Source of the DNA: Nigrospora sphaerica
Taxonomy: Eukaryota > Ascomycota > Sordariomycetes > Amphisphaeriales > Apiosporaceae
Direction of reading: 5' to 3'
NCBI GenBank assembly: GCA_018287875.1
Contig: JAGVVL010000002.1
Location: forward strand, 4,278,001 to 4,342,000
DNA length: 64,000 nt
Within the stretch, counting starts at the first letter, position 1; the number at the start of each line of letters is the position of its first letter. The position numbers were made by a program, and so were the translations under genes. The notes beneath the pieces are model-generated. The model was not told the DNA's origin. It saw only the letters and a list, made by a program, of their open reading frames with translations, and made no database searches. Shown here one piece after another: positions 40,739-64,000 of the stretch.

Positions 40739-41388
40739 GATGGGGGGTTTGCAGAGAGAGCGCGAGGGTATACCTTTTTTACCTTGGTGTCTAGTTCCTT
40801 ACCACCTAAATACCTAGCAATACGGCTCGAGGGTCTCGGGCTTGCAAACTCGATTTGCGCACAAAATGGAATGCGACACTGGACTCCTCTGCCTGGTGGC
40901 AAGGGCTCGAGGGAATGCGCAAGTGAGAGACAGTGAAGGTGCAGTACCTGCCGTGGTCCGTTTGGGCTCCTGCGAGTGGGAATCCCCGACGGCCAAGATA
41001 GTGGCCGTAGGGCCCGTGCGGGTCCCGATCGGTGGGTCCAGATTGGGGTCCCAAGTCCTCCCTCGGGGTCCAAGGCTCTGGGGGAATGGAGCTTGGCAGA
41101 AGAAAATGGCCGTCTTTGTTCTGCCGAGAGCCCATTCTTCTTCGCCTAGCGCAGGAACCGATCGCGACCAGATCAAGTGACATCATCGATCAAAGGGCGA
41201 GGCTCGTATCGCGTCGCTCACACGAGAGACGGCAAGCAGCCCATACTCAAACCCGCTCCCAAGGCGTTCCATCCATCGTGTCACGTACGGAGCACACGCT
41301 ATCAACCACGACGTCGGTGCACAGCCGGATACTCAGGGCGCTGCCACCTGCACGTGCCGTCAACCTTGTGCCAGCGGCTGTGAGGGTC
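40739..41388. other. Intergenic, glycosylase upstream region
   Basis: About 650 bp between the CM1 gene and the DNA glycosylase, both on the plus strand. The frame of the glycosylase is open back to about 41032, but the extra residues are not conserved-looking. Nothing else is seen. Confidence 0.6.
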
Positions 41389-42973: not shown

Positions 42974-45900
42974 TCATCTCCTCACCGCCACCATCTCACC
43001 CGCCCCCTCATCGCCCACCACGGCCGAATCCATTGAGGCGATATGCCACCGTAGCCCCCGGAGCTTGGCCTGTCCAATCCACTTGTGCGCCGGTAGGGAG
43101 TCAAAGTCCTTGCCCTCGGAGAAGGACTCGACAAACGGCAGGATGTCGTTCATCTCGACGCGCACCTCGCACGTGTGGTCCACCATGTGCATCAGCTCCG
43201 CCTCGGCCGTCGTTGCCGAGGCTTCGGCTGCCGCCAGCCCGGCATCCGTGATCCGCCGCGCCAGGTCCTCGACCTGGATCAGGTCGAAGCTGCCGTTCCA
43301 CCCGCTCTGCGACGGCAGCGTCTTCATCTCGGTCGCGATCTCCCGCATCTGCCGCATCAGGTCGACGAGCATTTCATCCGTGACCGTCATGTCCTCGCCT
43401 GCCGGCACCACGCGGTGGACGGCGACGGGGATGCCGAGCGCCTCGGCCGCCTTGGCGAGGTGCTTCTCGCTGGCCCATTTGGTGGCGACGTAGCCGTCGG
43501 ACCCGTCCGTCGGCGGCGTCCGGTCCTCTCTCGTCAGGTCGAGCACGCCGCCGCTGGAGATGAAGTGCAGAGGCGTGCGGTTCCGGGCCGCGAGGCGGAC
43601 GAGCGTTCTGGTCGCCATTAGGTTGGATCCCTTGAGCAGGTTGTAGTTGTCGAAGAAGGACCGGTTGGCACCGCTGTGCAGAATGAAATCGACCTCGGAC
43701 GCGAGCCGCTCAAAGACCTCCGGCTCGAGGCCGAGCAGCGGCTCGCCCAGGTCGCCCTCGTACGTCACAATCTTGTCCGAATCGACAATGGGCAACGCCC
43801 GTTTCTTGGGCCGGACGGCAACACAGTGCACCCGCGTCACGCGCTTGTCGTCTACCAGCTTCTGCAGGAGGTGCCGGCCCACGAACCCTGTGCAGCCCGT
43901 CAAGAGAACCGTGACCCCGTCCTCGGCCCCTCGGGCGGCCCGGGGAACGGCGTCCGCCGGGCGCACAACGTCCTCGTCCAGCGCCGTCTCGGCCTCCCAG
44001 TCGATGTCTTCGGCCTTGTCGGCCGTCTCGATCCTGGCGGCCATGCCGCCGAGGCTGCTGTCCTCAAACAGGTCGATGAGGGGAACCGCGACGCGGAACT
44101 CCCGGCGGACCATGGCCTGCAATTTGACGAGGAGGAGCGAGTTGCCGCCGACTTCGAAGAAGGTGGTCTGGTCGCGAATGCCGACCGCCCTGGCCACGTC
44201 TTTGGACACCACGTCCAGCCACACGCCCTTGAGCTTCTGCTCCGTTTCGCTGAGGACGACGTCGCCGTCGGCCTCCGACGCCTGCGGCAGCGCCAGCTCC
44301 GCAACGGCATTCCGGTTGACCTTGCCGTGCGCGCTCAGCGGTATGTTCCGCAGGGGAATCAGCAGGTTGGGGATCATGTACGGAGGAAGAGCCAGCTGGT
44401 AGCGGAGGTTCCTAAGGTACTCGTGTTGCGTGCCGTCGTCTGCCACGCCGCTCGGTGCCATTTCGACGTGGGCGACAAGCAGCTCGCCGGGCCTCACTGA
44501 TGCCACCACCCTGGTGACGACGCCCTCGGCCGACTTCATGATGGCAGCCTCGATCTCCTCCAGCTCCACACGCTGGCCGCGGAGCTTGACTTGCGTGTCG
44601 CCGCTGATTCTGCCCTCGAACAGGACAGCACCCTCGGGACTCAGACGGCCCACGTCCCCCGTCCGGTACACCGTCCGCCCGTCCACGGCCGCAAATTCTT
44701 CCGGTGCGTACGAGTTCCCGAGGAACTTCTGGTCCGTCAACTTGGTGTTGTTTAGGTAGCCTCTGGCAACACTGGGCCCGCCGATGACGATTTCACCGTT
44801 CACGCCGGCAGGAACGGGCTCCAGGTTGCGGTCCACGATGTAAACCGAATAGTTCGGCAGTGGTCGGCCTACCGGAATGTTCTCTGCGTGCGGGTCTGCC
44901 GCAGCTCCGTAGGCAATCTCCCCCTTGGTGCAGGTGATGGTCTCGCCTGGCCCGTACGAGTTGTAGAGCTTCAGGGCTGGGAGCGCCAGGGACTCGAAGC
45001 TCCTCAGGACGGCCTTTGTCATGAGCTCGCCGCCAGCCCACGCGAATCTCCAGCCGGTGGCCTTTCCGACCAGGTACTCGCTTCCGTACGTGATCCAGGT
45101 CGTGTACTCGGACGGTGTCGCACGTGTGTAGGTCACGCCCTCCCGTTGTATGGTCTTGGCGATCTCGACTGCGTCGCCCCGGTGGGCTTTGGGCACCACG
45201 ACGACAGTGCCGCCGTTCGCGAGTCCGACGAGTATCTGGTCAAGCGAGAAATCGAAAGTGTACGCACTCTGCTGCAGCACCACTTCCATCCCCAGCTCGT
45301 AGTGGCGAGTAAGGCCCTCGATCGTGTTTTGGAGAGCTGAGTGCCGCAGCTGAATACCCTTGGGGATCCCCGTCGTTCCACTGGTGAACAGAATAACGGC
45401 GTCCGCCTCGGCGCGCGCCTTGGTCATGGCGGTTTCGACCGTGGCGATGTCGCCTCCGCTAATGACGTCGGATACGTTGACGACGGCAACATCAGCCGGA
45501 AGTTCTAACTGGGGCAACTCATCCTTCGTCTCGGCGTGACACAACACGGCGCTGAGTTTGGCGACTTTGGCAACCGTCGCAAGCCGCGCAAGCGAGCTGC
45601 GAAGGTCGAGTGGAACGTAGGTAGCTCCGACTTGCCAGATGGCCAATATGGATAGAATCCATTGCGCCGTCGGCTCCTGGAAGACCGCAACACGCGAGCC
45701 CGACTTCACCCCAGATGTGGTCAGGCTGCTGGCGATGTGCGAAGCGTGGCGCTGCATTTCCGCGTACGACAAAGCGTTTCCAACACCATCCTTGATGGCC
45801 ACTTTCTGGGCATGCTGCCCTGCCACTTCCCGGATGCGGTGGGAGAGGGTTGCAGGCCATTGGGACTCCATCGCTGGGCCTGCGTTACCTGAAGTCAGTA

Positions 45901-48900
45901 TGCAAATTCACACTCGATGTCCACTCGGGGCTTGCTTACCGCGGCCCAGCAACTTTGCCTTCAGCACATCCTCCTCCTCCCAGATTGGGACGCTCTGGAC
46001 TTCCGTCTCCATGCTGGCGGCAAACACCTTAACCATGCGCATGAAGCTATCGAACAGCTTCTCGGTCGCAGAGCGCGCGTAGAGGTACTTCTGGGTTCGG
46101 AAGGTCACCTTGATATTCGCATTGGCCTCGTTCACATCGAGCACCAGGTCGTATGCCGTCTTGCCGACCGATGCCGTGCCGTCGGCCTCGCCTCCGAGAA
46201 CACGAGGCTTGTCGACGGCCAGTTGGCGGTAATCCATGAAAACCTGGAATAGCGGGCTATGGGCCGTGGAGCGCGGGATTTGCAACTGCTCGAGAAGCAC
46301 GTCAAAGGGGACGCGGGAGTTGGCGAGGGCAGCGTAGGCCTTGTCCCGCGCGTCGACCGTGGCGTCCTTGAACTTGACACCGCTTCCGTCTCTCCCCTTG
46401 AATCGAATGGGAAGAAGGTTGAGGAGGAAGCCCACGGTGCCGGCAACGCTGGAATCGGCGCGGTTGGCATCCGCGATGCCGATCACAAGGTCGTCCACGT
46501 CGAGGTGGCGGAACAAGAAAACCTTCAGTGCGGCCAAGAAGAAATGGAAGGTGGTGATGCGGTGTCGCTTGCACTGCGTCTTGATCTGCCGGGCGGTCCG
46601 GGCGTCCAACTCCGTCTCGACCAGCTCGTAGTCGTACACACGCAAGTTCTTACGACGGCCGGTCTGGGCCAGCGGGAAGAGGGGGAGGGTCTCGGGAAAG
46701 TCGGGATACATTTTGCGCCAAAAGTCCATTTCGCCCTGCATGGCGCCGCTTTCGACATCGCGGCGCTGCCGGGCGGCGAAGTCGCTGAACTGGCAGGGCA
46801 CCTCGGGCAGGGCTTCGCCGTCATACAGCTTGTTGATCTCGCCCAGGAGAATGTTGAAGCTGAAACCATCTATATTGATGTGGTGGAAACCGAAGAGAAG
46901 GAAATGCGTCGTGGGGGTTAAGGACAGAAGCTTGATGCGGATCGTCTCGCCCCGCGTGATTTGGAAAATGTGTTTCTGCAGCTCCTCCGTCTCCAGCTCA
47001 ACCTCGTCCTCGCCCGCAATGGACCGCCGCTCCAGATGCAGGAGCGACGTGGCCAGCACACCCTGCGTCGGTTCGTTCATGCGCTCGGGGTTGGCAAAGA
47101 AAGCCGTCCGGAAGGCTTCATGACGTTGTCCAATAGCGCGAATGGCGGCCTCGGCGTCACCCAGCCGGATCGGCCCCGTGAACTTCAGCCGGCAAGTGAG
47201 ATTAAACGCGGTGGGGTCCTCTAGGTACTGCATTAGGAACCAGAATCGAGACGAGGCGTACGACATCTTCTCCGTTTTGAGGAATACTAACGAGGACTGC
47301 GGCGGCACCGGGGCGGCCTGAAGCAATGTCGAGGGGCGACCGTCTATGTCCTGAGCGGCGTCGATAGGTTGCTGTTGTCGGTGGATCTCTTTTTCTTCCT
47401 GCTGTTCCTGCTTCTGGGGCGCAGGTGAGCTGGCGCCTACTTCAGATCGCTTGTCTTCGGACTCGTCCTCGGACGGAGGGTTGGTGGAAGTTGCGGGCGT
47501 ATAATCGTCTCCCACCTCCGAGTTGACAGCGCTCATCCCCGAAAGGGGCGTGGCGAGTTCCGAGGCGGTGGATGGTGCCATGCGCTTCCTGATTGAGAAG
47601 TAATCAACCCCGGGTTTGGCCGCATCCTCGGCGGCGGTTGGGGCGGGGGCGGAGACGGCCACATCGACGACAACCGGCTTGGCGGCCTCAGTGGCCTTCT
47701 CGCCCTCAGCTTCAGGGGCGGCTTCGGGCGCGGCTTCGGTGGCAACAGTGACTGCTGCCTCCTCGACCTTGGCTTCCGTGGCAGTCTCCGGCGCGTTGGC
47801 CGTCGCTGTCTCCTCGGCAGGCTTCTCGGCGTTCTCGGTAGTCGGGGCGGCTACGTTGGGGATGAGCTCCCTGCTCAACCGCTTGACAGCATCTTCCACC
47901 AGGTCGGCGACTGTCGCACCGCCAAGAATTTTGAGGACGGGCATGTCGAGGTCCAGTTCTTTGGTGAACCAGGACCTCATGTCGACAGCCAGCAACGAAT
48001 CGACACCGAGCTCAACGATTGTAGTCTCGGGAGTGATTCCTCTCTCATCCGGGTTCATGCTCAGCCGAGTGTAGAGGGTGGTCAACAAGCCATCTATCCA
48101 TCGGGGTCAGTATTAAGATTCAAGGGTGTGCGAGGCATACTTACCCAGTAGCAATTGGTAGACGTCTTCCTCGCTCGTCATCTCCTTGAGCTTGGAACGA
48201 ACCGAGACCGTGTTGCCACCTCGGCCGCCTTGGTTCTGCTCCTGCGGCTTAACGAGGCGCAACCAGGCGAACCTAGGGATGTTGACCCAGGCCGGCGGGT
48301 TCTCGTTACGCTCAACGTCGATTCGCTCGAGACCAGCCGTGATCTCGGGGTTTCGGCCCGAGTCGGGCTTTCCGGCCATGACGGCCTCGGCGAAGAATTG
48401 ATAGAATTCCCACTGTAGATGCATGTCAGTGCGCATCCTCCCGGGGCTGGCGTCGGTAGGCTGTGTCTCTTACCTCGTTGATGTTCGCATAACCCACCGA
48501 CCTCAGTCTCTCCAGCTTGCTGGGGTCGCGGTTGAGGTAACCCAGGCCGACGATGCCAGGCATGTTGATAGCCGAACCCACCAGGCCACGCTTGCGCCGA
48601 CCACCAACCAAACTGCACATGAAGGCGTTGGCAGCGGCGTACGATGTCTGACCGATGTTGCCTGAGACGGAAGCGAGCGACGAGAAGACCATGAAGAAGT
48701 CCAGATCGTCAGAGGGCGAGGAGAACAACTCGTCCAGGAACAATGTACCATCTACCTTAGGTTTAAGGGTGGTGACGAAGTCCTCGTACGTCTTGTTGGC
48801 GAACAGGCCATCAATCAGGATCATAGCGCCGTTGGCTACACCAGCAATGGGGGGCATCTCGGCGCAGATCTTGGCGTGGGTAGCCCGAACGGAGTCCCGC

Positions 48901-51900
48901 GACGTGATGTCCATCGCGTACAGTTTGATGGAAGCGCCTTGGGCTTCGACCTGCTCGAGCCAGGCCGCGTCGACCTTGGGGCTGCGACTCGCCAGGGCCA
49001 AGTGGCGCGCGCCACGTTGCACCATCCATCGCGCGAGGGCGAGGCCGACCTCCCCAGTGAGGCCGATCATGAAGTAGGTCTTGTCGCTGCGGAATTTGAT
49101 AAGCTCCTCGGCGGGCACGATGCGAGCGGCGACCTCCGGCTCGGCCTCCCAGTTGACGACGGGGAGATCCTGGTGCTGCGGCGCCAGCGCCTGCACGGTG
49201 CTCAGGGACAGAGTGCGGGCGTTGACGGGGGAAACCGTAGACAGAGCGTCGTTGACGGCCTTTGAGAAGACCTTGGAGACGGCGTCACTTGTGAACTCGC
49301 TCGTTGTGTATGCCTTCGAGGTGACCAGGTCGGCGCCGGTCAGCGCCTTGGACGCGGGGCCCAGGTGGTTGCGGATCCTGAAGCCCACCGTCCTGGCGTC
49401 AATTGCCTCGGAGAGGTCCACAAAGAGCGACACGCCCTGCGTGAGAGCAGGGAAGATGAACCGGTCGGGTGCCGAGGGGTGGATGTACTTGGTGCCAGCA
49501 TGGCCTGGGGACGCCGCAGTAAAAACAATCTGCTTGGTCGAGGCCTTCTCCTTCAGCAGCTGCAGGAGTGTGGGCGTGGGCTCGTGGACCAGGATGCTGG
49601 AACCAGCTCCCGACGCGGCCACGATGCTTTCAGCAAGCATGTGGGTGGCGCAGTGGTACAGGAGCGCCTCTTCGTCGCCGTTGAAGGTGTCGATGTCGAC
49701 GACGGCGTCTTTGGAGACAAAAACGGTGGACCGGCAGGTCTCCGCCAGCGCAAGAACTCGTTTGCTGCTCCTAAGGTTGACGCCCGCCACCAGGTAGAGG
49801 CACCCGGCACCGGCGACGTTGACAGCGTTGAGGATCGACTTGCTTACCTTGACCTCAATCTTGTCGCTTTCTGCGTCGGAACCTGCCACTTCAAGGAGGT
49901 GGTATCCCGAGTCGGAGTGGTTGATCTCGAGGACGGTCGTCTCAGGCTTGACGGTCTTGGTGATGGCCCGCCTCTCCGAGTTGAGGCGAGCGTTGACATC
50001 GGTAGCGGGCAGATAGCGCGGGATCAGCAGCTGGCCGTCCTCGATGGTCATCTCACGCTCCAGCGTCCAGAGCGGCGTGTAGGGCTTGGGCTTGCGCTGT
50101 GCCCAGGCATCCGAAATCTGGAGGCGTAGTAGGTGCTCCGAGATGAGCTCCGGGCTCGGGTGCTCGCCGCCATCGAAGTTGAGGAACTGGAGGCGAAGAC
50201 TGGTCATCTCACCGACGAGGCAACGACCCGTGCCCACCATCATGTTCATGTAGGGATCCTCGCCGCGGCTTCCCGTCGTCACCCAAAGCATGTTCTTGGA
50301 GTGGTCGCAAAGGCGTACGATGGCCTTGAACTTTTCCTCGGTGAAGGGGTCGAAAATGTGCTCGTCCAGCTCCAACAGACTAAGCACGGTCGGCTTTTCG
50401 GCGATGATGTCCTCGTCGATGTCCAGGATATCGGGAACGCGCAGTATCTCGTGATAGTAGGGCTGCAAGAGAGCTGCCAACGTGCGTACGAGACGCTTGG
50501 TCTGCGGCTTGCGCCCGCCGAGAAGCAGAAGGTTCTCGGAGAAGTTGGGCGACTCGGGCTCGAAGTCCAGAGGGTTGCGGATCATGTTCATCTGCATGTC
50601 CACGGCCTGCGTGAGCATGACGGAGAAGGGCACTATGTACAGCCTTTCGTCGGGGGTGGCCGTGTCGATGCCCGAGAAGCCCGTCTTGCGCATCACCTCG
50701 TTCCAACTGCTCTTGGGAATGAGCGGGCTGAACTTGCGGCCGTCGTCGCGGCCAGCCCACCAACCGGGCAGGCCGCAGAAGCCGAAGGCGATACGCAGGG
50801 GGTTGTTGTTGGTAATCTCCAGAAGGGCCAGGTGGCCACCGGGGCGAAGGAGCTTGCGAACGTTCTTCATGGTCGTCTCCAGCACCGACGTAGCGTGGAG
50901 CACGTTACCAGCGATGATGAGGTCATAAGAACCCTCCTCGAAGCCCTGTTCCTTGGGGTCCTTTTCGATATCGAGCGGCTTGAAGACCATCTTCTCCGAA
51001 TGCTTCTCGAACTTGTCCTGCGCCTCAACGAAGAAAGCGGCCGACACGTCTGTGTAGGTGTACGACGCGAAGTTCTCGCCCAGGCACTGCAGTGTCGCCG
51101 CCGTGGACGAACCCGTGCCGGCACCGATTTCCAGGATGCGCATGTTGTGGTGACGGTGGGAAAGCTGCTGCACAATCTTGCCGAGGTACATGTTGTACTC
51201 GTTGTAACCATAGTGGCCGAAGTAGAACTCCTCCAACATGTTGTTGGTCTTGAACTCCTCAAGCAGCGACAGCTCGCCACGCACAAACGGGATCAGGCGC
51301 TCGCCGATGAATACCAGCGTGTGGAAGTGCGGGTGCAGGGTCGACCAGTAGTCGAAGCGCTCCTTGATGTCGTCGGTCCAGTCGTCGTTGAGCCACTCCT
51401 TCTTGCAGGTGGTGTGCTGGCCGTTGGCGGCCAGCCCTACAACGTAAGCGGCCCAGTCCAGGACGCAAAGCTGGTGCCAATCGCACGACTCGCGCTCCTC
51501 CGCAGTGATGGCTTCGTGGAGCTTGCGCAGATAGTAGAAGCACATGCGCTCGACGAGCGCAGCACCCTCGTACTCCTCTTCGGTCAGCGTCCACTCCTTC
51601 CAGCCGAGGGCACCGTCGGGGTCGGCCTTGTCCCACACCGTCTCGGCAAAGGTTTGGCGATCGTCGGCCTCGGTGGGCTGCGTCAACGGTGTGACGTGGA
51701 GGCCCTCGACCAAAATGATGGCGTTCTTGCCGTCTTCGGCGTAGATGTCGACGTCGCCCGAAATACCGCTTTCCGACCGCGCGAGTGCGGCATCGAACGG
51801 CAGCGGCACCTCAACACCGGAATTCGCCTGCGTGGCAGCCGGGTTCACCGTGATGCGGCTGATGAGGGTGGGCACGTGGAGGGTCCAGAGGCGTCCATCC

Positions 51901-54900
51901 CCAGGGGCACCAATGGCGGCGAAGATGGACTGGAAGGCGACATCCAGTGTGGCCGGGTGAACGACAAAGTGCTGGTCGACAGACTCGGCATCGATGGGGA
52001 TGGTCATCTCGCCGTGGGCACCGCCCGTCTTGCGTCTCAGATCGGTGATGCCCTGGAACATGCCGGTGTACCCATAGCCGAGTTTGGCAAGCGCCGAGTA
52101 AAAGTAGTCAACGTCGACGTCCAGGATGGTGCCCGTCTGCGAAGGTCGTTCTGGGAGAGCGTCGAGGGACTGTTCGGCAAGCTGGATGCGAAGCTGTCCG
52201 CTGGCCATGGAGGTGAAGCCTCCGGTATCCTTGTTCATGCACGCATGGCACGAGAAGTCGGCCGTCACGAAGCTCTGCCCAGCCTCGACCTGCTTCTGTA
52301 CGTTGCTCATGGTGAAGATGGTTTCCACGCCCGTGTTGTCGTCGTAGAAGGACAGGGCACGGTGGATGCTGAAGTTCAGCAACTCCATGAGGCGCATCTT
52401 CTCGACCGGTGCCAAGACCTTGGCCGCCTCGAGGGCCATAACGGCAAACCCAGCAGCCGGGAACACGGTCTGACCCTGGATGGCATGCCCGCGCAGCCGG
52501 GGCATCTCGGCCGGCTTAACGTAGTTACGCCAGCGGTACTCGCCCTCGGCTTCATCTGTTGTTCGGGCACCCAAGAGCTCGTGGGGCTTGTGCTCACGAA
52601 GACGGTGAGCCTTCGAAAGACGCGTCTCGTTCCAGATGATCTTCTCGTGGTCCCAAGTGTAACCCGGTATCTCCTTTGAGATTTGAAATTGGGTGTCGGC
52701 GTCGAAGGCCAGGGCATAGCCCTTGAAATCCATGGCGCTGCCGCCGAGGATGGTCCAGATGGAGCCCAGGGTCGTCGCCATGGCGACGGTATCGTTCGAG
52801 CCGCGGCTGAGGGTTCCGAAATAGGGAACCGAAGATCCGGTAACTTCCTCGATCGTGAGGCTGGCAGGGCCCTTGAGCGCGGGATGGGGGCCGACCTCGA
52901 GGACGACGCCCGGGGTACCGCTGGCCTTCAACGCAGCGGTTAGGGCCTGGGAGAAGAGGACAGGCTGCAGCATGTTGTCTTTCCAGTACGAGTTGGACAG
53001 CTTCTCGGCATGTTCCATGGTGACCAGCTCTCCGTCGAGGACAGACGAGTACCAGCGAGCAGCCTCGGGGCCGGGCGTCTGGATCTGAATCCCACAGGCG
53101 CCCAGGGCCTCGAGGTAGTAAGGCGAACAGGGGACCATGTGGGCCGAGTGGTACGCGGTGTCGACCTTGAGCTTCCTCGCAAACTTGGACTCATCCTCGA
53201 AGATCAGCTGCACGAAATCGATGGCGTCCTCGTCGCCAGAGACAGTCACGCTGGCCGAAGAGTTGCTAGCGGCGACCTGGACGCGGCCCTTGAGCTTGGG
53301 CAGGCTGACCAGTTCCGCCGCGTCCGCCATATCGGTACCGGCCGCCAGCATACCACCCGACTTCCCGTTCGGGCCCTTAGCCAGCTTCGTGTACTTGCCA
53401 CGGTAGTAGGCAATGCGAATAGCATCGGTGGCAGTCAGAAACCCGGCGGTGTAAGCGGCGGCGATTTCTCCAGACGAGTGACCGACGACCGTCGTGAATT
53501 TGATGCCGGCGGCACCGAGGAGATCCACGAGAAGTATCTGGATGGCAGTGCAAATGGGCTGCGACAGCTCTCCCTCGGCAATCCTCGAAGTCTCTTTGTC
53601 CGCCAGGATCTCGGCCTTGAGCGACCACTCGGGACCATCCGGGAGATCGGCCAGCGACTTCTCCAGGCGGGCAACGAGCTCCTCGCCGAGCCTCGACGTC
53701 TGGATAATATGGCGGCCCATCGAGGCCCACTGGGCACCCTGGCCGGTGAAGATGCCCAAAACGTCCTCGGTCTTTGCGCTGGAGCGCACTGCTAGAGGCT
53801 CATTCTTGGACTTGCTCTCCTCCATCCGAGCCTCGATGGCGGCAATCAGCGACTCGGCGTCCAGGCCGGCGAAGGCGGCACGAAACTTGAAGGCCGTGCG
53901 GCGGGACAGCGTCCAGGAAAGATCATTGAGGTTGAAGTCGGGGCTTTCGCGCAGGAACTGGATCAGCGTGTCCAGCTGAGCGCGGAGAGAGCGCTCCGAG
54001 GTGGCCGAAAACAGGAAGGGGGTGACGGCCGGGCTCGGCTCGGCGCCAGCAGCAGCCGCCGCCACAGCCGGAGGCTCATAGGCCTCGACGATGGCGTGGG
54101 CGTTGGTGCCGCCGAATCCGAAGCTGTTCACACTGGCGCGACGAGGAACGCCAGCGGGCAGCTCGGGCCACTCGATGGCCTCGACCGGCACCTTCAGGTG
54201 GCCGTAGTAGGGCTCCAGGTCGGGGTTAAGCTTGGTAAAGTGCATGTTGGAGGGGATGAGCTTGTTCTGCACGGCCAGAGACGCCTTCATGAGACCGGCA
54301 ATGCCCGCAGTGCCTTCGGTGTGACCGATGACCGTCTTAATGGAACCGACGTAGAGAACGTCCTCGTCGGCGCCGTCTTCGGCCTCGTCGGGCTTTTCCT
54401 CCCCCTCCTTGTGCGAGAAGAAGGCGCGGTAGATGGCGCCGGCCTCCTGAGGGTCGCCAGCTTTGGTTCCGGTACCGTGAGCCTCGAAGTACTGGCACCG
54501 CTCCTCCTTCTTGGTGGGGTCAAGGCCAGCTCGAGCGTAGGTGTCGCGGATCAGGGCGGCCTGGGCGATGGAGCTCGGCATGGTGATACCGGGGGTACGG
54601 CCGTCCTGGTTGACGCCCGTCTCGCGGATGAGGCACTCGATGTGGTCGCCGTCACGCAGAGCAGCGCTCAGCGTCTTGAGCACCAAGGCACCCACGCCCT
54701 CGCCTCGGGCGTATCCGTCGGCGCCGGCGTCCCACATGCGCGATCGGCCAGTGGGGGAAAGCATGTTCAGGTTGCTTTCGGCGATATACATGGCTGCAGG
54801 GGAGCATGGTTAGTTCGCCATCTCCGCCGGGGGGTTAAGAAGTACGGGACTCGAGCGGGTTATGGCGGCAAGCACCCGTGCGGGGCCGAGGAAGCAACGG

Positions 54901-55757
54901 AGGAAGTTGCCTCCAGCCAGCCCGGTGGGGCCGGGAGGGGGACGTCCGGGGAAGCCCGTCCAGCCAGGGTCCCAGAGGCCGGGGGTAGAGAATGGACGGA
55001 AGAGACGCGGAAAGAAACAGGAAGACTTACTGGGAGAAAAGATGAGGTTGGTACCGGCTGCCACGGCCACGGGGCACTCGCCGCTCCGCAGCACCTGGAC
55101 GGCCTGGTGGACGGCCACCAGACTCGACGAACAGGCAGTGTCGATGGTCATGGACGGCCCGTGCCAGTTGAAGAAGTACGAGACGCGATTAGACATTATA
55201 CTGCGCGAGCTGCCGGTGGCGGCGTACGTGGGAATCTGTTCGCTGTCGGCGTAGACGATGCCCGAGAAGTCGTCGCACATGACGCCCACGTAGCAGGCCG
55301 TGTTGGTGTCCGACAGCGAGTCGATGCTCAGGCCGGCCGCCTCGAGCGACTCGTAGACCGTCTCCATCAGCAGGCGCTGCTGCGGGTCAATGGCCTCGGC
55401 CTCGCTGCCCGAGATGCTGAAGAACTGGGCGTCGAAGGCGCGCGTGTCCTGCTCGAGCAGGTACGAATGGAGCACCTGGAGCAGCAGGAGATTAGCTCGC
55501 CCTCACCGCTGTCCCACACCGGAACCAGGCTTCACCCTGGCCCGAAAAGGGGGTGGGTAGGTCTCGATGCTCACGTTGTTGGCGCCATGGTGGTGCCCGT
55601 CGTTGTTGTGGAAGTTGTCGGCCCGGAAGCGGTCGATCTTTTTCAGAACGTCGCGCGGCTGGCTCAGGAGCTTCCACAGCTTCGAGGCCGAGGTCGAACC
55701 GCCGGGAAAGCGGCAGCCACTTCCCACAACGGCGATGGGCTCGTTGGTGTAGGCCAT
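42974..55757 (-). CDS. Hybrid HR-PKS-NRPS megasynthase (KS-AT-DH-CMeT-psiER-KR-ACP-C-A-PCP-R)
   Basis: Builds a methylated reduced polyketide, condenses it with one amino acid and releases it through a terminal reductase. Six exons join in frame: 55575-55757, 55031-55475, 48474-54793, 48145-48412, 45940-48093 and 42974-45888; 4094 residues. KS has Cys176 in DTACSSS, His315 in HGTGT and His367 in GHTEG. AT has Ser649 in GHSSG. DH has His979 ([10 protein letters not shown]) and Asp1160. CMeT has LEIGAGTG (about 1430). The ER region (about 1830-2090) has no GGVG nucleotide motif. KR has Ser2248 and Tyr2261. ACP has Ser2438. C has HHINIDG at 2809. A has [12 protein letters not shown] (3290) and Lys3646. 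PCP has Ser3707. R has TGCTGFVG (3787) and Tyr3923-x3-Lys3927. A linker of about 200 residues, rich in Ala/Glu/Pro/Gln, joins ACP to C. The architecture matches cytochalasan and ACE1 synthases. Confidence 0.96.
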
Positions 55758-58304
55758 TGCGGGGACGGGAGTCGAAGGGGGGGGGGGTTTGGGTATCAGA
55801 AGAAAACAGGCCAAGAGGCGGGCGGGAGGAACAAGGAGTGCGAATATACAGCCAAGAAAGAGACAAGACCGGAGAGTACAGCGAAGAGAATGTAGACGGT
55901 TCGAGGCGGCCAGTGAGGCTGATAGAGGGCAATGGACGCGGGCTAAGCGGCACGTCGGGGCAAGGTACAATAGAAGAAGAGTTAGATGGTTTTGTTCACC
56001 GAGACACGGACGGCACAAAAGGCGAGGAAGAGGGTCAAGAGTCGAGGAATAGGCCGCTCAGTCTCAAGTCTGGTCTCAGCTGGGGAGCTACAGAGAACGG
56101 CCGACGAAAGCAGCAGTCCCGGTGTTCTTATTCAAACGTCCATGGCCGAGGCAGGCTTCGCCGCGAGCCTCCAGATACTGGCTCACGGCGTGCTCACGGC
56201 AGTGAGTCTCCGGCTGACAATCAGACGGCGCGATATGACACGCAGACAAGGGACGGCGTGGAACCCACGGTCCCACCCCGCCGGTCGCCGGGCTGGAAAC
56301 GTGGAAGCGTGGAAGCATCTTGCGGGGAGACTGGAGCCGAGGCCTGCAAGGGCCATCGTTCGCGCCTTAATGCGCTCACCCACTGACTGACCGGCGTCTG
56401 ACCCGGACGTGACAGGCCAGCCGCCGTTCTGACAAGCTTTTGCCCAGCAAGGCCAAGAGGAATACAAGCTTCCAAGTCGCACACGCCAACAGCCTAGCTG
56501 GGCCCCCGGTACGGCCAAGCCCCCGATATAGCCTGACTCGCCCCTGATACACCGTGTGGGGGTGGGCAGGGGCAGCCATGGAGGACGAGCTCCCGGGCCA
56601 GCTGACAACACCCCTGTACCCAGCCTAGTGGAGCTAGGCCCGTATCTGGGACTTGCCTGGCTTCCATGCGAACACCCCACGCCCTGTTTAGGGCCGATGG
56701 GGGGCACCGACAGGGTTGGTGAATTCCAGCCTAATCCCTCACATTTACTAGTACCGTCGTGCTATCGCGACTGTGCACGGCGCTGGGGCTGATGACGGCC
56801 GAGGCGGGGACTGCTGACCAGCAGACCCAACAGGGTCCTCGTCAGCTCCGGGATGGCCTGCCTCATTACAACCTGTTCGGCCGGGCACGGGCGAAACGCG
56901 CTCGAAATGGGCAAAGACGAGCTAAACTGCTGCTGCGAAGGTCACCAATCTACCGTCTGTCCCTTTCCGGCACGCCGCAGGACCGGGATTTCCGGCACGC
57001 GTTGCAGCACAACCGGATGAACATGTCTGATCCAAATCGGTCCACCCCAGCGGGCGCACGCAGTACTTTTGGCCCGTCACTGACTCGTAGCCTCGTACAC
57101 GCCGAATGGGGACGACCCTTGGCGTTCGGCCCTCTCTTGGTGGCTGGCGTGCGTGCTTGCGTGTGGGTGTGTCTGTGTATATCTGTATGTGGCGTGGGGG
57201 TGTGTGTGTGTGTGTGTATGTGTGTGTGCCAGGTGCGGAAACGGGGTGGTCGCCAGTGCCATGGCGAGTGGTTTCTGGCTACTTGGGCGTCCCTTTTATG
57301 TTCCTTGGGAGAGAGAAGACGGGCGGGCGGCAACGCCCTCTTTTCGCTCCACGTTCACGACCCCACGAGAATCTCGCTCTCGCTATCGCCAACGCTGCGA
57401 GGCTCAGACTGGGACGTCATGGGTCCCGTCGCTGGGCGTGTCTTGGTGCTATGCGACTCAGCAGTCCGCCGGGCAGCGAAATCACACGACAAAAGCCATC
57501 GTCGCTACCACGGTCGAAGCAGGCCCTAAGCCAGAACCGATCCTGCATATCGTCAATGAAGACCCCGGCACTTCGATCACCGGAGGGTAAAGGGGCAACT
57601 TCGTAGCGGAAACCGGTCAGGACCGCGGCTCTCGTGACACTCAATGGCATAGTTCTAAGCAAAAGATTGAGCCGAGAGAGTCTTGTTGGCGTGGTACACG
57701 GGTGGATCCCGGCACCGCCTTACGGGGACTCTCTGCTAAGAAGAGCCATCTACATATGCAAAACGCAAGTGGTTCTGGGCCTGATGGACTCTCTCCTATT
57801 CCTTGGACCATGGCTTCAACGGTGTGGGGAACGGGGCTTCTTGGTATCGGCAGGCAGTGTGCCAACTCCTTATATCATGATCCTGTACGCCAGCATCGAG
57901 CTATACGGCTATATACTAAAAGCCTGCGCCCATTGTTTTCTGCCTCGCGTTCACTATTGTGCGATATCACATCGCGAGCCCAGGTTGCACGTATTGTTTT
58001 GTCCCTCCCCCCCCTAAGCAACCCAAGCAGAATCCACAACCGACTCCAGAACACCGAACCAAACGACAGGAAGAAGCACCCGCAAGACTCCGCGAACCGA
58101 GGTCCAAAAAAAGGGTTAACCACGGCATCCAACCTGGGAATATAAAGTTTCGTCAAAAAGTCACCCGGCCGGGAGCCTGGCTTGGTGAAGCATTACAAAG
58201 GAGAGAAAGAGCGGTGGCGGCGACGGCGCCGGCCTGGCCACCTTGTGTCCCAGTGGCAGCCACCTCGGTTAGGAGACCCCAGAGATTGGGAACCTGGAGC
58301 ACGG
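55758..58304. other. PKS-NRPS upstream region
   Basis: About 2.5 kb between the PKS-NRPS start and the end of the bZIP gene. No supportable gene. A C-run lies just before the PKS-NRPS ATG and a TATA-like TGTATATTC lies about 90 bp upstream of it (minus strand). A GT repeat occupies 57200-57228. The rest is probably promoter and bZIP 3' flank. Confidence 0.55.
57200..57228. repeat. GT microsatellite
   Basis: A GT repeat interrupted once by an A, within the PKS-NRPS upstream region. Confidence 0.85.
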
Positions 58305-59819
58305 TCAGTCCATCTGCTCGGAGACGGTGGTGATGAGAAATTGACAGGGGCCGCTTACCTTGTCCTGAAACAAGCTCTGTAGGTCCTCCCGCCCGCCTTG
58401 CGCCAGGTCAACCGGGTGGCCGCCTACGTGCGAATATTGCGGCTCGGGGCTCATGTCGCCGAACATGTACATTTGGTGTTGCGTCGTCGGCATGTGCTGT
58501 CTGACGCTGCCCTGCATCAATGTCTCGAACTCGGCGATGTACAGGTCCTGGGCGGCCTCGGTGATCTTGTCCCGATAGCCCTGAGCCTCCCAGGCCGGCC
58601 AGGTGTGCATAGCGCTCTCGTGCAGGCTGTTGAGCGTTTTTCGTAGACGCCGGCAACGTGACACACGCTGTGCGGCCTCGGCCTGGCTTCCCTTCTGGAA
58701 GGAGCTGGTGTAGTAGGCTGTCACCATGCTGTCAAAGTCGGAGAAGCCGGCCGCCTGGATAAAGTCGAGGATGGCTTTGAAGCGCGCGGCATTCTGGGCT
58801 TCGGTGCTTGTGTCGGCGTTGCCTTGGTGTTCCTGGGAGAAGCTGGCACGGCTGCACATGCCCGACGGCGCCCAAAGAGGCGGCGACATGTTTAGGGAGC
58901 TAGCGGTGCTCGAAGCCACCGAGGGCGAAGGCACCATGCCCAGGCTTCCCGCCGACAGCGGGCGGGCGGGCGGCACCACGTCCTGCATCTCCAGGTGCGG
59001 GCTTTCGTAGGCATTGGTATCGCGCTGGGCCAGGGCGCCCATGTCGCCGGTAGCCTCGTGGAGCGGCGGGTAGGCCTGCTGGGCCCCCGAGGACATCTTG
59101 GCGAAGCCCGCGTCTGTCGGCGCGGCTTGCCGCTGGGGCGAGGCCGGGACGGCCATGGCCATCAATTGCGCACGCATCTGCTCGCGGTGGTGGTGACAGG
59201 GCCCGGTGACGCCGTTGCAGGTGCACGCGAAGGCATCAGTTGGCCACATGCCGAGGCCGGCAGGCTCGAGCGGAGACACGGCATGGAAAGGCACGTGCTG
59301 CATGCCGGCCGCCCACGACCGCATCGCGGCCATGTCGAAACCGTCCATCGACGAGCTCGATTCCATTGCATGGGCGCCGGCGCCGAGATGGCGTTCTTCT
59401 TCCAGTTGCTGCTCTAACCGCTGCTGATCCTTGATCTTCTGCCCTGCCGATGGGGTTCAGTCGAGGGTCTTCCCCATGGGGGATTGATTACACTGGACCG
59501 GGTGCTTGGCCATATGGCTTGGCGTGCTTGGCCGTCTTGGCGATGAGGCCGCGCGGGTGCAGTGGAGTGGAGGAGGGGCATCTACGTACGGTGTTTCCTC
59601 TGCGCAATCTTGTTCTGCAGGCGTCTCCTTTCGAGGGAGTTGGGACTCTGGGACCGCGTCTTGCGGGGGCCGGCAGACGGGGAGCTGGGCGAGGGCGACG
59701 CCGCCGCCGACGAGGACGACGCTCGGTCGCAGCTGGCCTCGGCGCACATTCCGTCCAACGGGTGGTAGTCTTGCTGCTGCTTCTGCTGCTGCTGCTTCTG
59801 CTGCTGCTGATTCTGCTGA

Positions 59820-59871
<52 letters not shown>

Positions 59872-60085
59872 TGTTGCTTGCTGCTTGCTGACCTTGGTCT
59901 GACACTGGTATTGCGAGGATAGGGGAGTGGGACGAAGCTCGGGCGACGCGTGCTGACGCTGGGCATTCGCGTGCTAACTTGTTTATACGTCGTCGGTTGC
60001 TATTCCGCCAGACCAATTCATCGGGCCATGGGGTATGGTGGACAGGCGGGCACGTGGCGGCATGGCAATCAGACGGCGAGGCCAT
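58305..60085 (-). CDS. bZIP transcription factor with polyglutamine tract
   Basis: Probable DNA-binding regulator, placed between the megasynthase and the hydrolase and so a candidate cluster regulator. Two exons, 59590-60085 and 58305-59443, join in frame across a GTACGT donor, giving up to 544 residues. A Gln-rich run (about 73-105, encoded by mixed CAG/AAG/AAC) precedes the basic region SLERRRLQNKIAQRKHRQK. Asn158-x7-Arg166 and Leu175 nine residues later fit the bZIP rule, but the zipper is short. A conserved-looking CTCNGVTGPCHHH patch lies further on, and the C-terminus is Leu/aromatic-rich. The start is uncertain: the 60 residues before the Gln run are not conserved-looking and another frame with ATG at about 59966 overlaps. 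At the 3' end, GTAAGC at about 58357 could remove 45 nt in frame before ATGGACTGA. Confidence 0.85.
59771..59871. repeat. CAG/CTG-rich triplet repeat in the bZIP gene
   Basis: CTG triplets on the plus strand (CAG on the coding strand), interrupted by CTT and ATT, including about fifteen uninterrupted units near 59823-59869. In frame they encode polyglutamine with a few Lys and Asn. Confidence 0.95.
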
Positions 60086-61783
60086 GACATACGCGACTGA
60101 GTATTAATCCTGATAGCAAGTCGAGAAGGGTAGAACGGCTCCTATCCCATGGGCCTCCCAGCTCCGCAGGGTCCTGCTCCGCCAGCACGTCCCGTCGCTA
60201 GGACCCTGGAGACCCCGATGGCGATACAATATGCCCTATTTGGCAATTCATGCGGGTCGGTCTACTGAAGTTGGTTCGGTGGGGATGCCCGGGGGGGTTG
60301 CAGACTGTCAGCCAGTTCTACGTATCGCTGGCGTGTCTGTAGCTGCTGCGACAAGGCATTATATGGGGGGGAAGGGAGATAGCAAGGAGCAGTCGGGCTG
60401 CCAAACACCAAATTTGTCCGTCCGACTCACTCGGCTGGGTCCTTACGAGGCCTTCCCCCAGGCCTGCCCATGACTGGCGGCTGCGCATCTCCACAATTCC
60501 TGGCGAAATTCGCTGGCACCGTAGGGCCAGAGAACAGACGATTGCACCCACCGAAGCGGCACCCGCGCTCATTGTTGAAAGTGCCCCTGAGCCAACAAGG
60601 GACGCACGAGGCGTATCCCATGGACTCAGTCGCCATGGTCCGGCAGAGCAGGCAGAGAAGGCAAAACCGGGCAATGGAAGGCACAGCGAGCAGGGATGGA
60701 CGCCGGGGGACGAAACGGAGTGGGACAGAAGGAGACGAGGCGGGCGGGCGGGGACGCCAAAGAGATGTGGCGTAGCACTCGTGGCACTGGCTGACAGGGA
60801 GAATGGCCCGAGTGGGCAATTGAAATACGGGGTGAATGGGCTAGGGACAAGGGCTACTTACCTCCCAGCCGAACTATTGCCGACAACCATGCGACAGCCG
60901 CCGGTCGGGGGGATAGCAGTGGGAGAAAGTGGGCGGATGAGAGACGGCGAGGGAGAGGGGAGAGAGGGTGGAAAGAGGCGAACAGACGGTGGGATCTCAA
61001 ACGGGGCCCGTGCAGAATTAAGAATAAATATCTACGTACCCTGCCTAACTAGTGCCCTATCGTGTAGCAAAGTACCGAAAGCTTAGCCCAAGTACCCCTG
61101 TCCTCCTGATGGGGCTCATCCATGGTCTCCAATGCCACCAGGAACACGACCAGGCGCGCTACTGAAACGGGTAGGTAGCTTCTGGAAAAGAAAGGTGAAG
61201 GCGTCGACATGACTCGGGAGCACCAGTTTGGGCCAGGGCTCCCAGCGTCCCATCCCAAACACTGGCAAGCGCACCGCTGCGTTGCATTGAGGTGCCTGAA
61301 CATGCAGGCGTGCAACGTGGGCGTGGGCGATGAGGGAAATTTCGGCTTCCAGTAGCAGGAGAAGTAAATGGCTCTCCCGTCAGCCACGCCCGGTGCCAAA
61401 CCGGCTGCCCTACCATACCAACCATTACCGGCAGAGATTGGGATGGCCCAGAGATAGATCGCGATGCCCTCCCTCGCCCGCAGACTATATCGACCGACCT
61501 ACATGACTCGCACTGGAGCCTTGGGGTTGTCAGCCAGACCGGGGGACCAGCTCTCTTCTCCCCGCGCCCAGTTCTCGCCCGTCGCCGCCAATCGCCGCAT
61601 TTGGTCCCTCATCCGTCTATCTTGTGCCCAGGCGAACCCCCCTTCGCGCCGTGGCCCCCTTCTTCACCCGCCGCGAGCGTGTTGGCAAGCACAAAGCCGA
61701 AGCCGTGGGCGACTTTCGAGTGCCAGCCCATCCGTCCCTCGCTCTTCTTCGCCGTATCGACAGACAGACCACCAGACCAGACC
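60086..61783. other. Divergent promoter between bZIP and FSH hydrolase
   Basis: About 1.7 kb between two genes that read away from each other. No supportable gene. The FSH frame is open back to 61601, but those codons are rich in Pro/Ser/Arg and look like leader sequence. The part 60880-61000 is purine-rich. Confidence 0.55.
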
Positions 61784-62536
61784 ATGGCGTACATGACCCC
61801 CAAGCCCGTTCTGCTATGTTTCCACGGCGCCGGTAGCTCGGCCGCCATCTTCCGTATCCAGAGTTACATGCTTGCCAAGGCCTTGGCTCCCCATTTCGAC
61901 CTCGTTTACCTCGATGCACCCTGCCACAGCCGGCCCGGCCCCGGCATCCTGCCCCTCTTTGCCGACAGCGGCCCCTACTGGCGCTGGTTCCGGCAGACTC
62001 GGCACGGCCAGGCCGGCGCACGCGGCGCGCACGGCGCCGACGGCTCGCGCCTTCTGGAGCTGCTGGAGATCCGGCAATGGGTTTTGACCCGCGTCCGCGC
62101 CCAGGGGGTGTGTCCCACCGATGTTGTGGGCATCCTAGGCTTCAGCCAAGGCGCCATGGCCGCCATGGCTCTCCTCGGCCTTCAAATCGGCACCCGCTCC
62201 CCCGAGTGGGCCAACCTTCGGTTCTGCGTCATGATGGGAGCTGCTACAGGCGACGGCCACGGCGGCAACGTCCTCAAGACCGCCTCGTCCGAGCTGTCAG
62301 CCCTGACCAAGTCATCCGGCAGCAGTCTCTTCCCCGGCTTCACATGCCACGTTGTAGGAAGCCAGGACGAATGGGCCGACGAGGGCCGCCAGATCGCCGC
62401 CCACTGCGAGCCGAAGAGGTCGAGGCTAATGGAATTCGAAGGCGGCCACGTAGTGCCCTCGACGCCCGAGGACGTCACGAAATTGGTCATGCAGATTATG
62501 AAAACGAGCGAGGATAGCCAGACAGTGGGAAATTAG
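61784..62536 (+). CDS. FSH-family serine hydrolase (cluster hydrolase)
   Basis: Small alpha/beta hydrolase of the FSH1 group, cytosolic by lack of a signal peptide. One exon, 250 residues, the normal family length. The core starts PKPVLLCFHGAGSSAAIF, and the catalytic triad reads Ser121 in GFSQG, Asp195 in SQDEW and His222 in GGHVVPS. Members of this family recur in PKS and PKS-NRPS clusters: LovG releases the lovastatin nonaketide, and hydrolases of cytochalasan clusters such as ccsE and pyiE have been implicated in steps after synthase release. Because the neighbouring megasynthase ends in its own reductase, a role after release or in editing is more likely here than chain off-loading; this is inference. 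ATG at 61784 was chosen for its position just before the first strand. Confidence 0.93.
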   Translation: MAYMTPKPVLLCFHGAGSSAAIFRIQSYMLAKALAPHFDLVYLDAPCHSRPGPGILPLFADSGPYWRWFRQTRHGQAGARGAHGADGSRLLELLEIRQWVLTRVRAQGVCPTDVVGILGFSQGAMAAMALLGLQIGTRSPEWANLRFCVMMGAATGDGHGGNVLKTASSELSALTKSSGSSLFPGFTCHVVGSQDEWADEGRQIAAHCEPKRSRLMEFEGGHVVPSTPEDVTKLVMQIMKTSEDSQTVGN

Positions 62537-63364
62537 GCGTCGTTTTGCTGCTACTCAGCCGCGTTCTGGAACGCCGATGGCTTTCCCTCCGCTAGCTACG
62601 CTACGGAGTAATGGTAACTAATTTTAATATTTCGTCCACCACGGAGCACATTAAGCCGGCGGCCGTCTGCGTACCTTTTTCTATAGTAGCCGTCTCGCCG
62701 TGGCCTTGTTGTATTTTGGTGCTTTTCTCGAAGTCCAGGTTGGATGAATACGCCGCAGTTCCGGACGGAGCATTAGTGGCGTCATCATACCACCACAAAC
62801 AAATGGGGCAGAGTTCTCCGTGACTGCATCTGGCGTTTGTTAATCTTCAGTTGTTCTGGTACCTTCTCGATTGTCAAGGCCACGTAGCCCCGGTATGGGA
62901 TATCATCAAGTCTGCGAAGAACAGCTACATACGCAGGCAAAGGGTTATTCCGTGGTCCCCGTAGTTGTATTAAAGTTTTTTGGTTTGGACGTGCCTACTG
63001 CAAACGTCGGGATGGCACTCTTCAGAGTTCAAACGAACTTTAATACTCTTCCCGCCGATCGACACAACTTTGGCCTGGTGCACTAGGGAGAATCGGGTAG
63101 TTGTATAAATACACGTACTAAGATGACCAGGAGAAGCGCGGTCCCCACCAAGTTTGGATATCCAGTTTTAATTACAGAACAGAGCTAAGCAAACGCCCAA
63201 ACGCTTGAAAGAGGAAAGTGGTGTCACACAACATGCAACGGTGCAGGAAGAGCGAAAATGCGGGACCCGTCACAATCGCGTGACGGCAATCCCGCGTATA
63301 GTGTCCGAACCCGGTCTGGAACGGCGAAACGACCCCATTCGCATCCACGGAGCCAGCCGCCGTC
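62537..63364. other. Convergent 3' flanks of hydrolase and enoyl reductase
   Basis: About 830 bp, more AT-rich than the genes either side, between the 3' ends of the FSH hydrolase (+) and the trans-enoyl reductase (-). No gene seen. Confidence 0.65.
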
Positions 63365-64000
63365 CTAGGCCGCCTTGGCTTCGCCCACCCGATAGACAAG
63401 TTTCTGGCCCGAGACCTCGCCCTTTCGGATCATGTTCACACCATCCAGCAGACCGTCGAACCCGTTGGGCTCGACGCGTGTGGGATGCGGCGTGAGCTTG
63501 CCGGCGTCGAACAGCTGCTGGATGACGTTGAAGAAGGGCCGGGCGAACTCCTTCACGGCCGGCTCGCCATCGTTACCGTACGGCGCGGGCCAGCTGCACG
63601 GCTTGCCGCCCAGCTTGCTGGCCAGGATCCAGTCCGGCTCGACGACCTTGCGGGTCGACGTCGGGTGCGGGTCCAGGGCCGTGTACTTGCCGCCACAGCG
63701 GCCGATGGCCTGGTAGCAGATCTTCATCGACGACTCCTCGGTGATGCAGTCCAGCGCGTAGTCCAGCGCGTTGCCCGTGTGCGCTCGGATGTCGGCACCG
63801 CAGGTCGGCGACTTGTAGTCGAATACGACGTCGGCGCCATAGGACTTGACGAGGTCGAAGTTGCGCGGGGAACACGTCGTGATGACGGTCAGGTTGCATC
63901 TGGGGGCGGGTTCCGGGTCAGACGAGGAGGCGCGAGTGGGGGAGGAAAGCCATCGCCAGACACTTACAGCTTGAGCAGCTGGATAGCCATGGTGCCCGTC
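63365..64000 (-). CDS. Trans-acting enoyl reductase, partial (cut by window end)
   Basis: NADPH-dependent enoyl reductase of the medium-chain dehydrogenase group that works in trans on PKS-NRPS-bound chains (LovC, TenC, CcsC type). Only the C-terminal part is in the window: one exon at 63968-64000 and beyond, and the last exon at 63365-63899, joined over a 68-bp intron (GTAAGT donor). The visible residues begin in the nucleotide-binding fold (TGTMAIQLLKL), continue through TTCSPRNFDLVKSYGADVVFDYKSP and HTGNALDYALDCITEESS, and end with NGFDGLLDGVNMIRKGEVSGQKLVYRV, all typical of this family. No stop or frameshift is seen. It supplies the activity missing from the degenerate ER of the PKS-NRPS. 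The start and the substrate-binding N-terminus lie past the right edge. Confidence 0.93.
   Translation of the reverse strand, partial: DGHHGYPAAQAVSVWRWLSSPTRASSSDPEPAPRCNLTVITTCSPRNFDLVKSYGADVVFDYKSPTCGADIRAHTGNALDYALDCITEESSMKICYQAIGRCGGKYTALDPHPTSTRKVVEPDWILASKLGGKPCSWPAPYGNDGEPAVKEFARPFFNVIQQLFDAGKLTPHPTRVEPNGFDGLLDGVNMIRKGEVSGQKLVYRVGEAKAA

What the first reader, a model, noticed from the sequence alone, without database searches (positions are those of the whole stretch)
42974..64000. PKS-NRPS cluster with trans-ER and FSH hydrolase: likely cytochalasan- or ACE1-type pathway, cut by the window edge
Three parts that define the core of cytochalasan-type pathways lie within 21 kb: a reductase-ended HR-PKS-NRPS, a separate enoyl reductase and an FSH hydrolase. 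A bZIP gene sits among them. The known cytochalasan/ACE1 sets also need a cyclase (Diels-Alderase) and oxidases. None is in the window left of the synthase, so they should lie to the right. The product is unknown.
Basis: partly seen in the sequence, partly recalled or inferred. Interest (0 to 1): 0.9.

Follow-up and report, generated by a model that had tools for sequence, protein, structure and literature searches.

The report
Fungal PKS-NRPS cluster with ATP-grasp ligase
A fungal gene cluster that joins a polyketide to an amino acid was taken for a cytochalasin-type pathway, but no gene for that pathway's ring-forming enzyme was found in it, and it seems to belong to an uncharacterised family, here with a peptide-ligase-like enzyme, whose product is unknown.

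Summary
The core is real: an intact 4094-aa HR-PKS-NRPS (KS-AT-DH-MT-KR-ACP-C-A-T-R) at 42974-55757(-), an FSH hydrolase at 61784-62536(+), and a LovC-like trans-ER that starts at 64515, past the window edge. The bZIP call is weak. Extending the contig adds DUF7702, two P450s, an ATP-grasp gene and an ABC transporter.

No Diels-Alderase was found in the locus. The genome search found two, on other contigs, each beside another ketosynthase, so the fourth gene of the published cytochalasan cassette is missing.

The synthase joins a clade of 23 of 121 sequences (support 1.0) with adenylation code DF[DE]RA[AG]STCK; one member bears an unverified "ACE1" label. FSH and ATP-grasp hits share contig lengths with 7 and 2 of 22 clade relatives, and with 0 of 98 others. 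A 72-kb region of contig C1 holds a same-clade synthase plus paralogues of ER, FSH, ATP-grasp, DUF7702 and both P450s.

Most likely: an uncharacterised aminoacyl-polyketide family, pyrrolinone-type without enzymatic Diels-Alder cyclisation; the ATP-grasp enzyme probably forms an amide. A sub-clade lacking the reductase domain questions a purely Knoevenagel FSH role. Product unknown; new variant of a known kind.

The parts
42974..55757 (-). HR-PKS-NRPS, KS-AT-DH-MT-KR-ACP-C-A-T-R, 6 exons, 4094 aa
   Evidence: gene model; Pfam; catalytic motifs; 64% identity over 100% to Cytospora mali and Diaporthe ilicicola proteins
42977..43930 (-). terminal reductase domain with Ser/Tyr/Lys retained (HFISSGG, YVATK)
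   Evidence: best solved relative psoA (9x29)
44150..45888 (-). adenylation domain and start of the T domain; ten-residue code read as DFDRAASTCK (positions set by recalled GrsA PheA motifs)
58305..60103 (-). candidate bZIP regulator, Gln-rich N-terminus, intron 59589-59444
   Evidence: splice model; PF00170 14 bits, below cut-off
61784..62536 (+). FSH1-type serine hydrolase, 250 aa, Ser121-Asp195-His222 (putative Knoevenagelase or off-loading hydrolase)
   Evidence: PF03959; triad invariant in 22 aligned sequences
63365..64000 (-). trans-enoyl reductase, C-terminal part; gene continues to 64515 outside the window (exons 64515-63968, 63899-63365)
   Evidence: LovC 3b6z 3.7e-93

Best explanation
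A biosynthetic cluster of an apparently uncharacterised PKS-NRPS family. The iterative PKS with trans-ER builds a reduced chain, C-methylated if its MT domain is used. The C-A-T module adds one amino acid, selected by a pocket with a conserved Arg at the position of PheA T278 (substrate unknown). The R domain, with Ser/Tyr/Lys kept, releases an aldehyde, and the FSH hydrolase steers it to a pyrrolinone (Knoevenagel type) without enzymatic Diels-Alder cyclisation. The two P450s oxidise the product, and the ATP-grasp enzyme forms an amide on a carboxylate of an intermediate or building block. Inferred: every chemical step, above all the order and substrate of the ATP-grasp step.
Against: The best ATP-grasp paralogue in this genome is on C13, not C1, and the P450-2 paralogue on C1 ranks second. 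For 20 of 22 clade relatives no ATP-grasp hit has an equal contig length; Cytospora mali and Seirophora lacunosa have both genes but on contigs of different length, so the ligase may be optional or unlinked there. Six relatives lack the R domain, and two of these (Clohesyomyces, Lojkania) share a contig length with an FSH hit, so FSH may act as a releasing hydrolase. Equal length is only a proxy for the same contig. One clade member is labelled ACE1 by JGI (P0022). The two C1 P450 matches each contain one in-frame stop (intron or defect, not examined). No product or expression data. Clade-II membership was not tested by tree.
Confidence: 0.55

Rival explanations
1. Cytochalasan or ACE1-type cluster whose Diels-Alderase lies elsewhere in the genome, was missed or was replaced.
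For: Three of the four cassette genes are present; two Diels-Alderase loci exist in the genome; a clade member at 50% identity carries the JGI name ACE1 (P0022).
Against: Both Diels-Alderase loci sit beside other KS genes on C5 and C10; the C10 synthase is outside the clade and the C5 one matches other relatives best; no Diels-Alderase match in the scanned gaps or on C1.
Confidence: 0.08
2. In this family the FSH enzyme is a releasing hydrolase: it frees an N-acyl amino acid, which the ATP-grasp ligase then couples to an amine; the R domain is dispensable.
For: Six relatives, monophyletic, end before the R domain, and two of them share contig lengths with both FSH and ATP-grasp hits; triad invariant in 22 sequences; a Cytospora relative is named Esterase LovG.
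Against: The R domain here keeps Ser/Tyr/Lys; hydrolases are also part of cytochalasan clusters, where a Knoevenagel product is formed (PMC8752850 passages); the missing R domains could be gene-model truncations or separate genes (not tested).
Confidence: 0.25
3. The ATP-grasp, P450s and transporter belong to a neighbouring cluster, and the metabolite needs only synthase, ER and FSH.
For: ATP-grasp hits share a contig length with only 2 of 22 clade relatives; a second PKS (ext 101805-103964) and an AflR-like match lie further right; the neighbouring 2OG oxygenase has its best paralogue on C13 and none on C1 near the second set.
Against: On C1 the ER, P450-2 and ATP-grasp paralogues follow each other on one strand as they do here, with the synthase next to the ATP-grasp gene; 4 contig lengths are shared by ATP-grasp and FSH hits.
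Confidence: 0.12

Closest known systems
[quoted passage not shown] PMC8752850, passages)
   Same: PKS-NRPS with R domain, trans-ER and hydrolase
   Different: no Diels-Alderase found near the synthase; an ATP-grasp gene is present; separate from the genome's DAase-linked C10 synthase in the tree
Clade II pyrrolinone-type clusters of Minami et al. 2020 (himeic acid II-B, flavipucine II-C, unassigned II-alpha/beta/gamma; PMC7421883)
   Same: hydrolase present, trans-ER present, no Diels-Alderase, P450s
   Different: the paper's main text has no word beginning with ATP; membership not testable because its sequences and supplements were not read
Pseurotin synthetase psoA (PDB 9x29)
   Same: best solved match of the R domain, including GYVAxKWASE
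   Different: pseurotin clusters are listed without trans-ER; among the 120 listed relatives only a Lasiodiplodia protein is named psoA (P0102, 45% over 61%), outside the clade
Fungal ATP-grasp enzymes in natural-product clusters: Cp1B (E-64), FsqD (fumisoquin), AnkG (NK13650) (PMC12568646, passages)
   Same: stand-alone ATP-grasp in a fungal biosynthetic pathway; amide formation for Cp1B (shown there) and AnkG (proposed there)
   Different: the E-64 pathway is NRPS-independent; the passages seen describe none of the three with a PKS-NRPS; sequence relation to this family not tested
SAOUHSC_02373 (7r8p/7r8q), recalled as an L-amino-acid ligase (title of Pederick et al. 2022 seen only in a reference list; its link to 7r8p is recalled)
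   Different: 18% identity; bacterial; substrates not inferable from the fold

Membership tests
Cytochalasan biosynthetic cluster | PKS-NRPS with terminal R domain | tested here: met
Cytochalasan biosynthetic cluster | trans-enoyl reductase | tested here: met
   LovC 3.7e-93
Cytochalasan biosynthetic cluster | alpha/beta hydrolase | tested here: met
   PF03959
Cytochalasan biosynthetic cluster | Diels-Alderase in the cluster | tested here: not met
   DA_N and DA_C only on C5 and C10; none in the gap scans. Limits: the family search can miss weak matches (it missed the cluster's own ATP-grasp), and some gaps were scanned on one strand only
Cytochalasan biosynthetic cluster | KS/C domains group with CcsA, CheA, PyiS, ACE1 | not testable with these tools
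Pyrrolinone-type (clade II) PKS-NRPS cluster | putative Knoevenagelase (alpha/beta hydrolase) gene | tested here: met
   FSH gene 61784-62536, with homologues on equal-length contigs in 7 of 22 clade relatives; that it is a homologue of Fus2 or CcsE was not tested
Pyrrolinone-type (clade II) PKS-NRPS cluster | R domain competent for reductive release | tested here: inconclusive
   Ser/Tyr/Lys kept, but PMC7421883 reports no residue that separates R from Dieckmann domains, and all R-bearing rows printed (54 of the 60 relatives printed) keep Tyr
Pyrrolinone-type (clade II) PKS-NRPS cluster | position in the clade II phylogeny | not testable with these tools
   sequences of the 884-member set not available
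Tetramate (Dieckmann) clusters, clades Ia/Ib | no hydrolase (Knoevenagelase) gene in the cluster | tested here: not met
   FSH gene present
ATP-grasp carboxylate-amine ligase | ATP-grasp fold and conserved polar residues | tested here: met
ATP-grasp carboxylate-amine ligase | amide-forming activity | not testable with these tools
   needs enzyme assay

The most novel reading that the evidence does not exclude
An undescribed fungal cluster family in which a stand-alone ATP-grasp ligase extends the product of a PKS-NRPS by an amide outside the assembly line, giving polyketide pseudopeptides, and in which one lineage has lost the terminal reductase and passed off-loading to the FSH hydrolase.
Probability: 0.35. 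Interest if true: 0.62.

Novelty: new variant of a known kind. Interest (0 to 1): 0.42.

Why it matters
It questions an attractive filing (cytochalasan) and points to an apparently uncharacterised PKS-NRPS clade whose members come from Cytospora, Diaporthe, Xylariaceae, Biscogniauxia, Aspergillus, Dothideomycetes and lichen-forming fungi (names; their grouping recalled). If the ATP-grasp enzyme does extend the PKS-NRPS product, it would join two amide-forming strategies that I did not find combined in fungi in the paper searches made (listings). The sub-clade without reductase domain offers a natural test of what the FSH hydrolase does.

Tried and rejected
Cytochalasan filing: not supported for lack of a Diels-Alderase (and gap scans 27, 60, 61, 82-86). 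Not all gaps were scanned in six frames: one strand only for ext 72150-73060, 74450-75600, 79300-81150, 82380-85500 and 85493-86900; four of six frames for 86880-88430.

Frameshift or broken synthase: rejected, since all interruptions are GT-AG introns.

Filing by names given by sources (ACE1, psoA, EqiS-like): not used; the ACE1-labelled P0022 is a clade member and is told as evidence against.

Assigning the amino acid from the A-domain code: tried, left open; an acidic or polar side chain is only a guess from Arg at position 4.

2OG oxygenase at ext 81137-82381 as a core gene: not supported, as its best paralogue is on C13; left as possible accessory.

Whole-genome search with PF02655 missed the cluster's own ATP-grasp gene, so family searches of this genome have false negatives; the protein search found it.

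No solved sequence relative was found at E 0.001 for the ATP-grasp or the FSH hydrolase. Paper searches pairing ATP-grasp or ATP-dependent ligase with PKS-NRPS listed no paper whose title or abstract start describes a fungal PKS-NRPS cluster with an ATP-grasp gene; listings only, apart from the papers cited. Searches for the 7r8p enzyme's paper found nothing useful. Organism not identified. ABC transporter paralogues not searched (cap reached).

Full report
What is there. The window is C12:4278001-4342000 of a 51.6-Mb assembly in 33 contigs, fungal by its genes. Coordinates above 64000 below continue the window coordinates into the same contig (ext). The minus strand 55757-42974 encodes one intact PKS-NRPS of 4094 aa in six exons, all introns GT-AG. 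Pfam domains read KS-AT-DH-MT-KR-ACP-C-A-T-R, and catalytic motifs of KS, AT, DH, MT, KR, ACP, C, A, T and R are present (motifs recalled). No enoyl-reductase family was reported in the synthase frames, consistent with a need for the trans-ER. To the left lies an HhH-GPD DNA-repair gene (41011-42504), so the synthase is probably the left edge. To the right come a candidate bZIP gene (58305-60103; only 14 bits to PF00170), the FSH hydrolase (61784-62536) and the trans-ER (63365-64515, 360 aa, LovC-like).

Beyond the window: DUF7702 gene (65.6-66.5 kb, minus), P450-1 (68288-69787, plus), P450-2 (70445-72178, minus), ATP-grasp gene (73011-74498, minus, start 74420, 469 aa; start), ABC transporter (75536 to about 79.9 kb, plus), 2OG oxygenase (81137-82381, minus), MFS transporter (82819-84598, minus), 2OG oxygenase (85493-86883, plus), DUF3533 gene (88418-89902, minus). 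An AflR-like match (98785-99048) and a second PKS (101805-103964) probably belong to another cluster.

Is it cytochalasan? [quoted passage not shown] Three are here. The fourth was not found: the genome has DA_N matches at C5:4096209 and C10:1134743 and a DA_C match at C10:1134245, each within 7 kb of another KS gene. The C10 protein resembles fsa2 and CghA. Scans of gaps in this cluster found no Diels-Alderase. Limits: the whole-genome family search has false negatives (it missed the ATP-grasp gene), and a few gaps were read on one strand only. PMC7421883 (parts 1-3 of 6 read, plus passages) notes that a spontaneous [4+2] cycloaddition can give the same skeleton, so absence of the gene does not prove a linear chain.

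Where the synthase belongs. The protein search returned 2058 relatives, of which the best 120 were listed and used. In a midpoint-rooted tree of 121 sequences without the R domain the query joins a clade of 23 at support 1.0, with Cytospora mali and Diaporthe ilicicola as nearest (64% identity). Adding the C1 and C10 synthases gives a clade of 24 at support 1.0, also in KS-only and C-only trees. The C10 synthase lies outside it, and the C5 synthase matches relatives outside it best. All 22 clade relatives share the adenylation code DF[DE]RA[AG]STCK, read at positions set by recalled GrsA motifs; none of the other 38 relatives printed has it (one search printed 60 of 120). One clade member, P0022, bears the JGI name ACE1, with no organism; the others are called hypothetical or by general PKS/NRPS names, or have none. 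No row named from Pyricularia, Aspergillus clavatus or Chaetomium globosum is among the 120, 8 of which have no name. References such as CcsA, ACE1 and TenS were not obtained, so the relation to them is open.

Evidence for a conserved cluster. The FSH search returned 40 proteins and the ATP-grasp search 48. I compared contig lengths in the hit tables. FSH hits share a contig length with 7 of the 22 clade relatives (Diaporthe ilicicola, Xylariaceae FL0016, Biscogniauxia mediterranea, B. marginata on a 35-kb contig, Xylariaceae FL0804, Clohesyomyces aquaticus, Lojkania enalia) and with 0 of the 98 other listed relatives. ATP-grasp hits do so with 2 of 22 (Clohesyomyces, Lojkania) and 0 of 98. 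Four contig lengths are shared by ATP-grasp and FSH hits. Locus tags put FSH and synthase ten apart in Diaporthe ilicicola (8212, 8222) and ATP-grasp and FSH ten apart in Puttea exsequens (005857, 005867). Against: Cytospora mali and Seirophora lacunosa have synthase and ATP-grasp on contigs of different length. Equal length is a proxy for the same contig, and distances are otherwise unknown.

A second set in the same genome. C1:9156436-9168926 encodes a synthase of the same clade with code DFDRAGSTCK and an R domain. Within C1:9097338-9168926 (72 kb, 0.14% of the genome) lie paralogues of DUF7702 (the only other match, 26%), P450-1 (best paralogue, 52%), ATP-grasp twice (46% each; the best paralogue, 48%, is on C13), FSH (best, 44%), ER (best, 57-74%) and P450-2 (second best, 47%). 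Both P450 matches contain one in-frame stop, intron or defect, not examined. ER, P450-2 and ATP-grasp keep their order and common strand, as do DUF7702 and P450-1 their order and opposite strands. The 2OG oxygenase has no paralogue there, which serves as a contrast and suggests that it is outside the conserved set. Another KS lies inside the C1 region (9108753-9109622), so two clusters may be neighbours there.

Mechanism. By the classification of PMC7421883, hydrolase plus trans-ER without Diels-Alderase fits the pyrrolinone-type himeic-acid or flavipucine pattern, or an unassigned clade. The R domain keeps Ser, Tyr and Lys and is closest to psoA among solved structures, although that paper found no residue that separates reducing from Dieckmann domains. 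The FSH triad Ser121, Asp195, His222 is invariant in 22 aligned sequences, 21 of the 40 hits plus the query. Six relatives (P0011-P0016) end before the R domain and form one nested clade, and two of them share contig lengths with FSH and ATP-grasp hits. That favours, for this sub-clade at least, an FSH enzyme that releases the chain; gene-model truncation or a separate R gene was not excluded.

Verdict. The core observation is right; the cytochalasan label is not supported. The cluster is a new variant of a known kind, the fungal PKS-NRPS cluster, from an apparently uncharacterised family. It may already be counted among the unassigned clades of PMC7421883, whose supplements I could not read.

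Noticed in passing
G000:C1:9097338-9168926 (L030, L031, L032, L033, L035): Second region with a same-clade PKS-NRPS, two ATP-grasp genes, FSH, ER, P450 and DUF7702 paralogues in the same genome; another KS lies inside it.
   Followed up: partly
P0011-P0016 (relatives): Six synthases of about 3700 aa, from Dothideomycetes and lichen fungi (grouping recalled), lack the terminal reductase domain yet keep the same adenylation code.
   Followed up: partly
L017, L018, L019, L020 (C5:4096209, C10:1134245-1135255): Two Diels-Alderase loci beside other PKS(-NRPS) genes: candidate decalin or macrocycle clusters.
   Followed up: partly
G000:C13:4195219-4196622 (L029): A further ATP-grasp paralogue (48%) with no KS match reported within 400 kb on that contig.
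   Followed up: no
window 5804-7312: A P450 frame 43% identical to P450-2 of the cluster, 36 kb to the left of the synthase.
   Followed up: no
ext 98785-103964 (L012, L013): AflR-like regulator match and a PKS (KS-AT) gene, probably a separate neighbouring cluster.
   Followed up: no
G000:C19:60672-61415 and C19:827429-828172: Two KS matches with identical score and frame length on one contig: recent duplication or assembly artefact.
   Followed up: no
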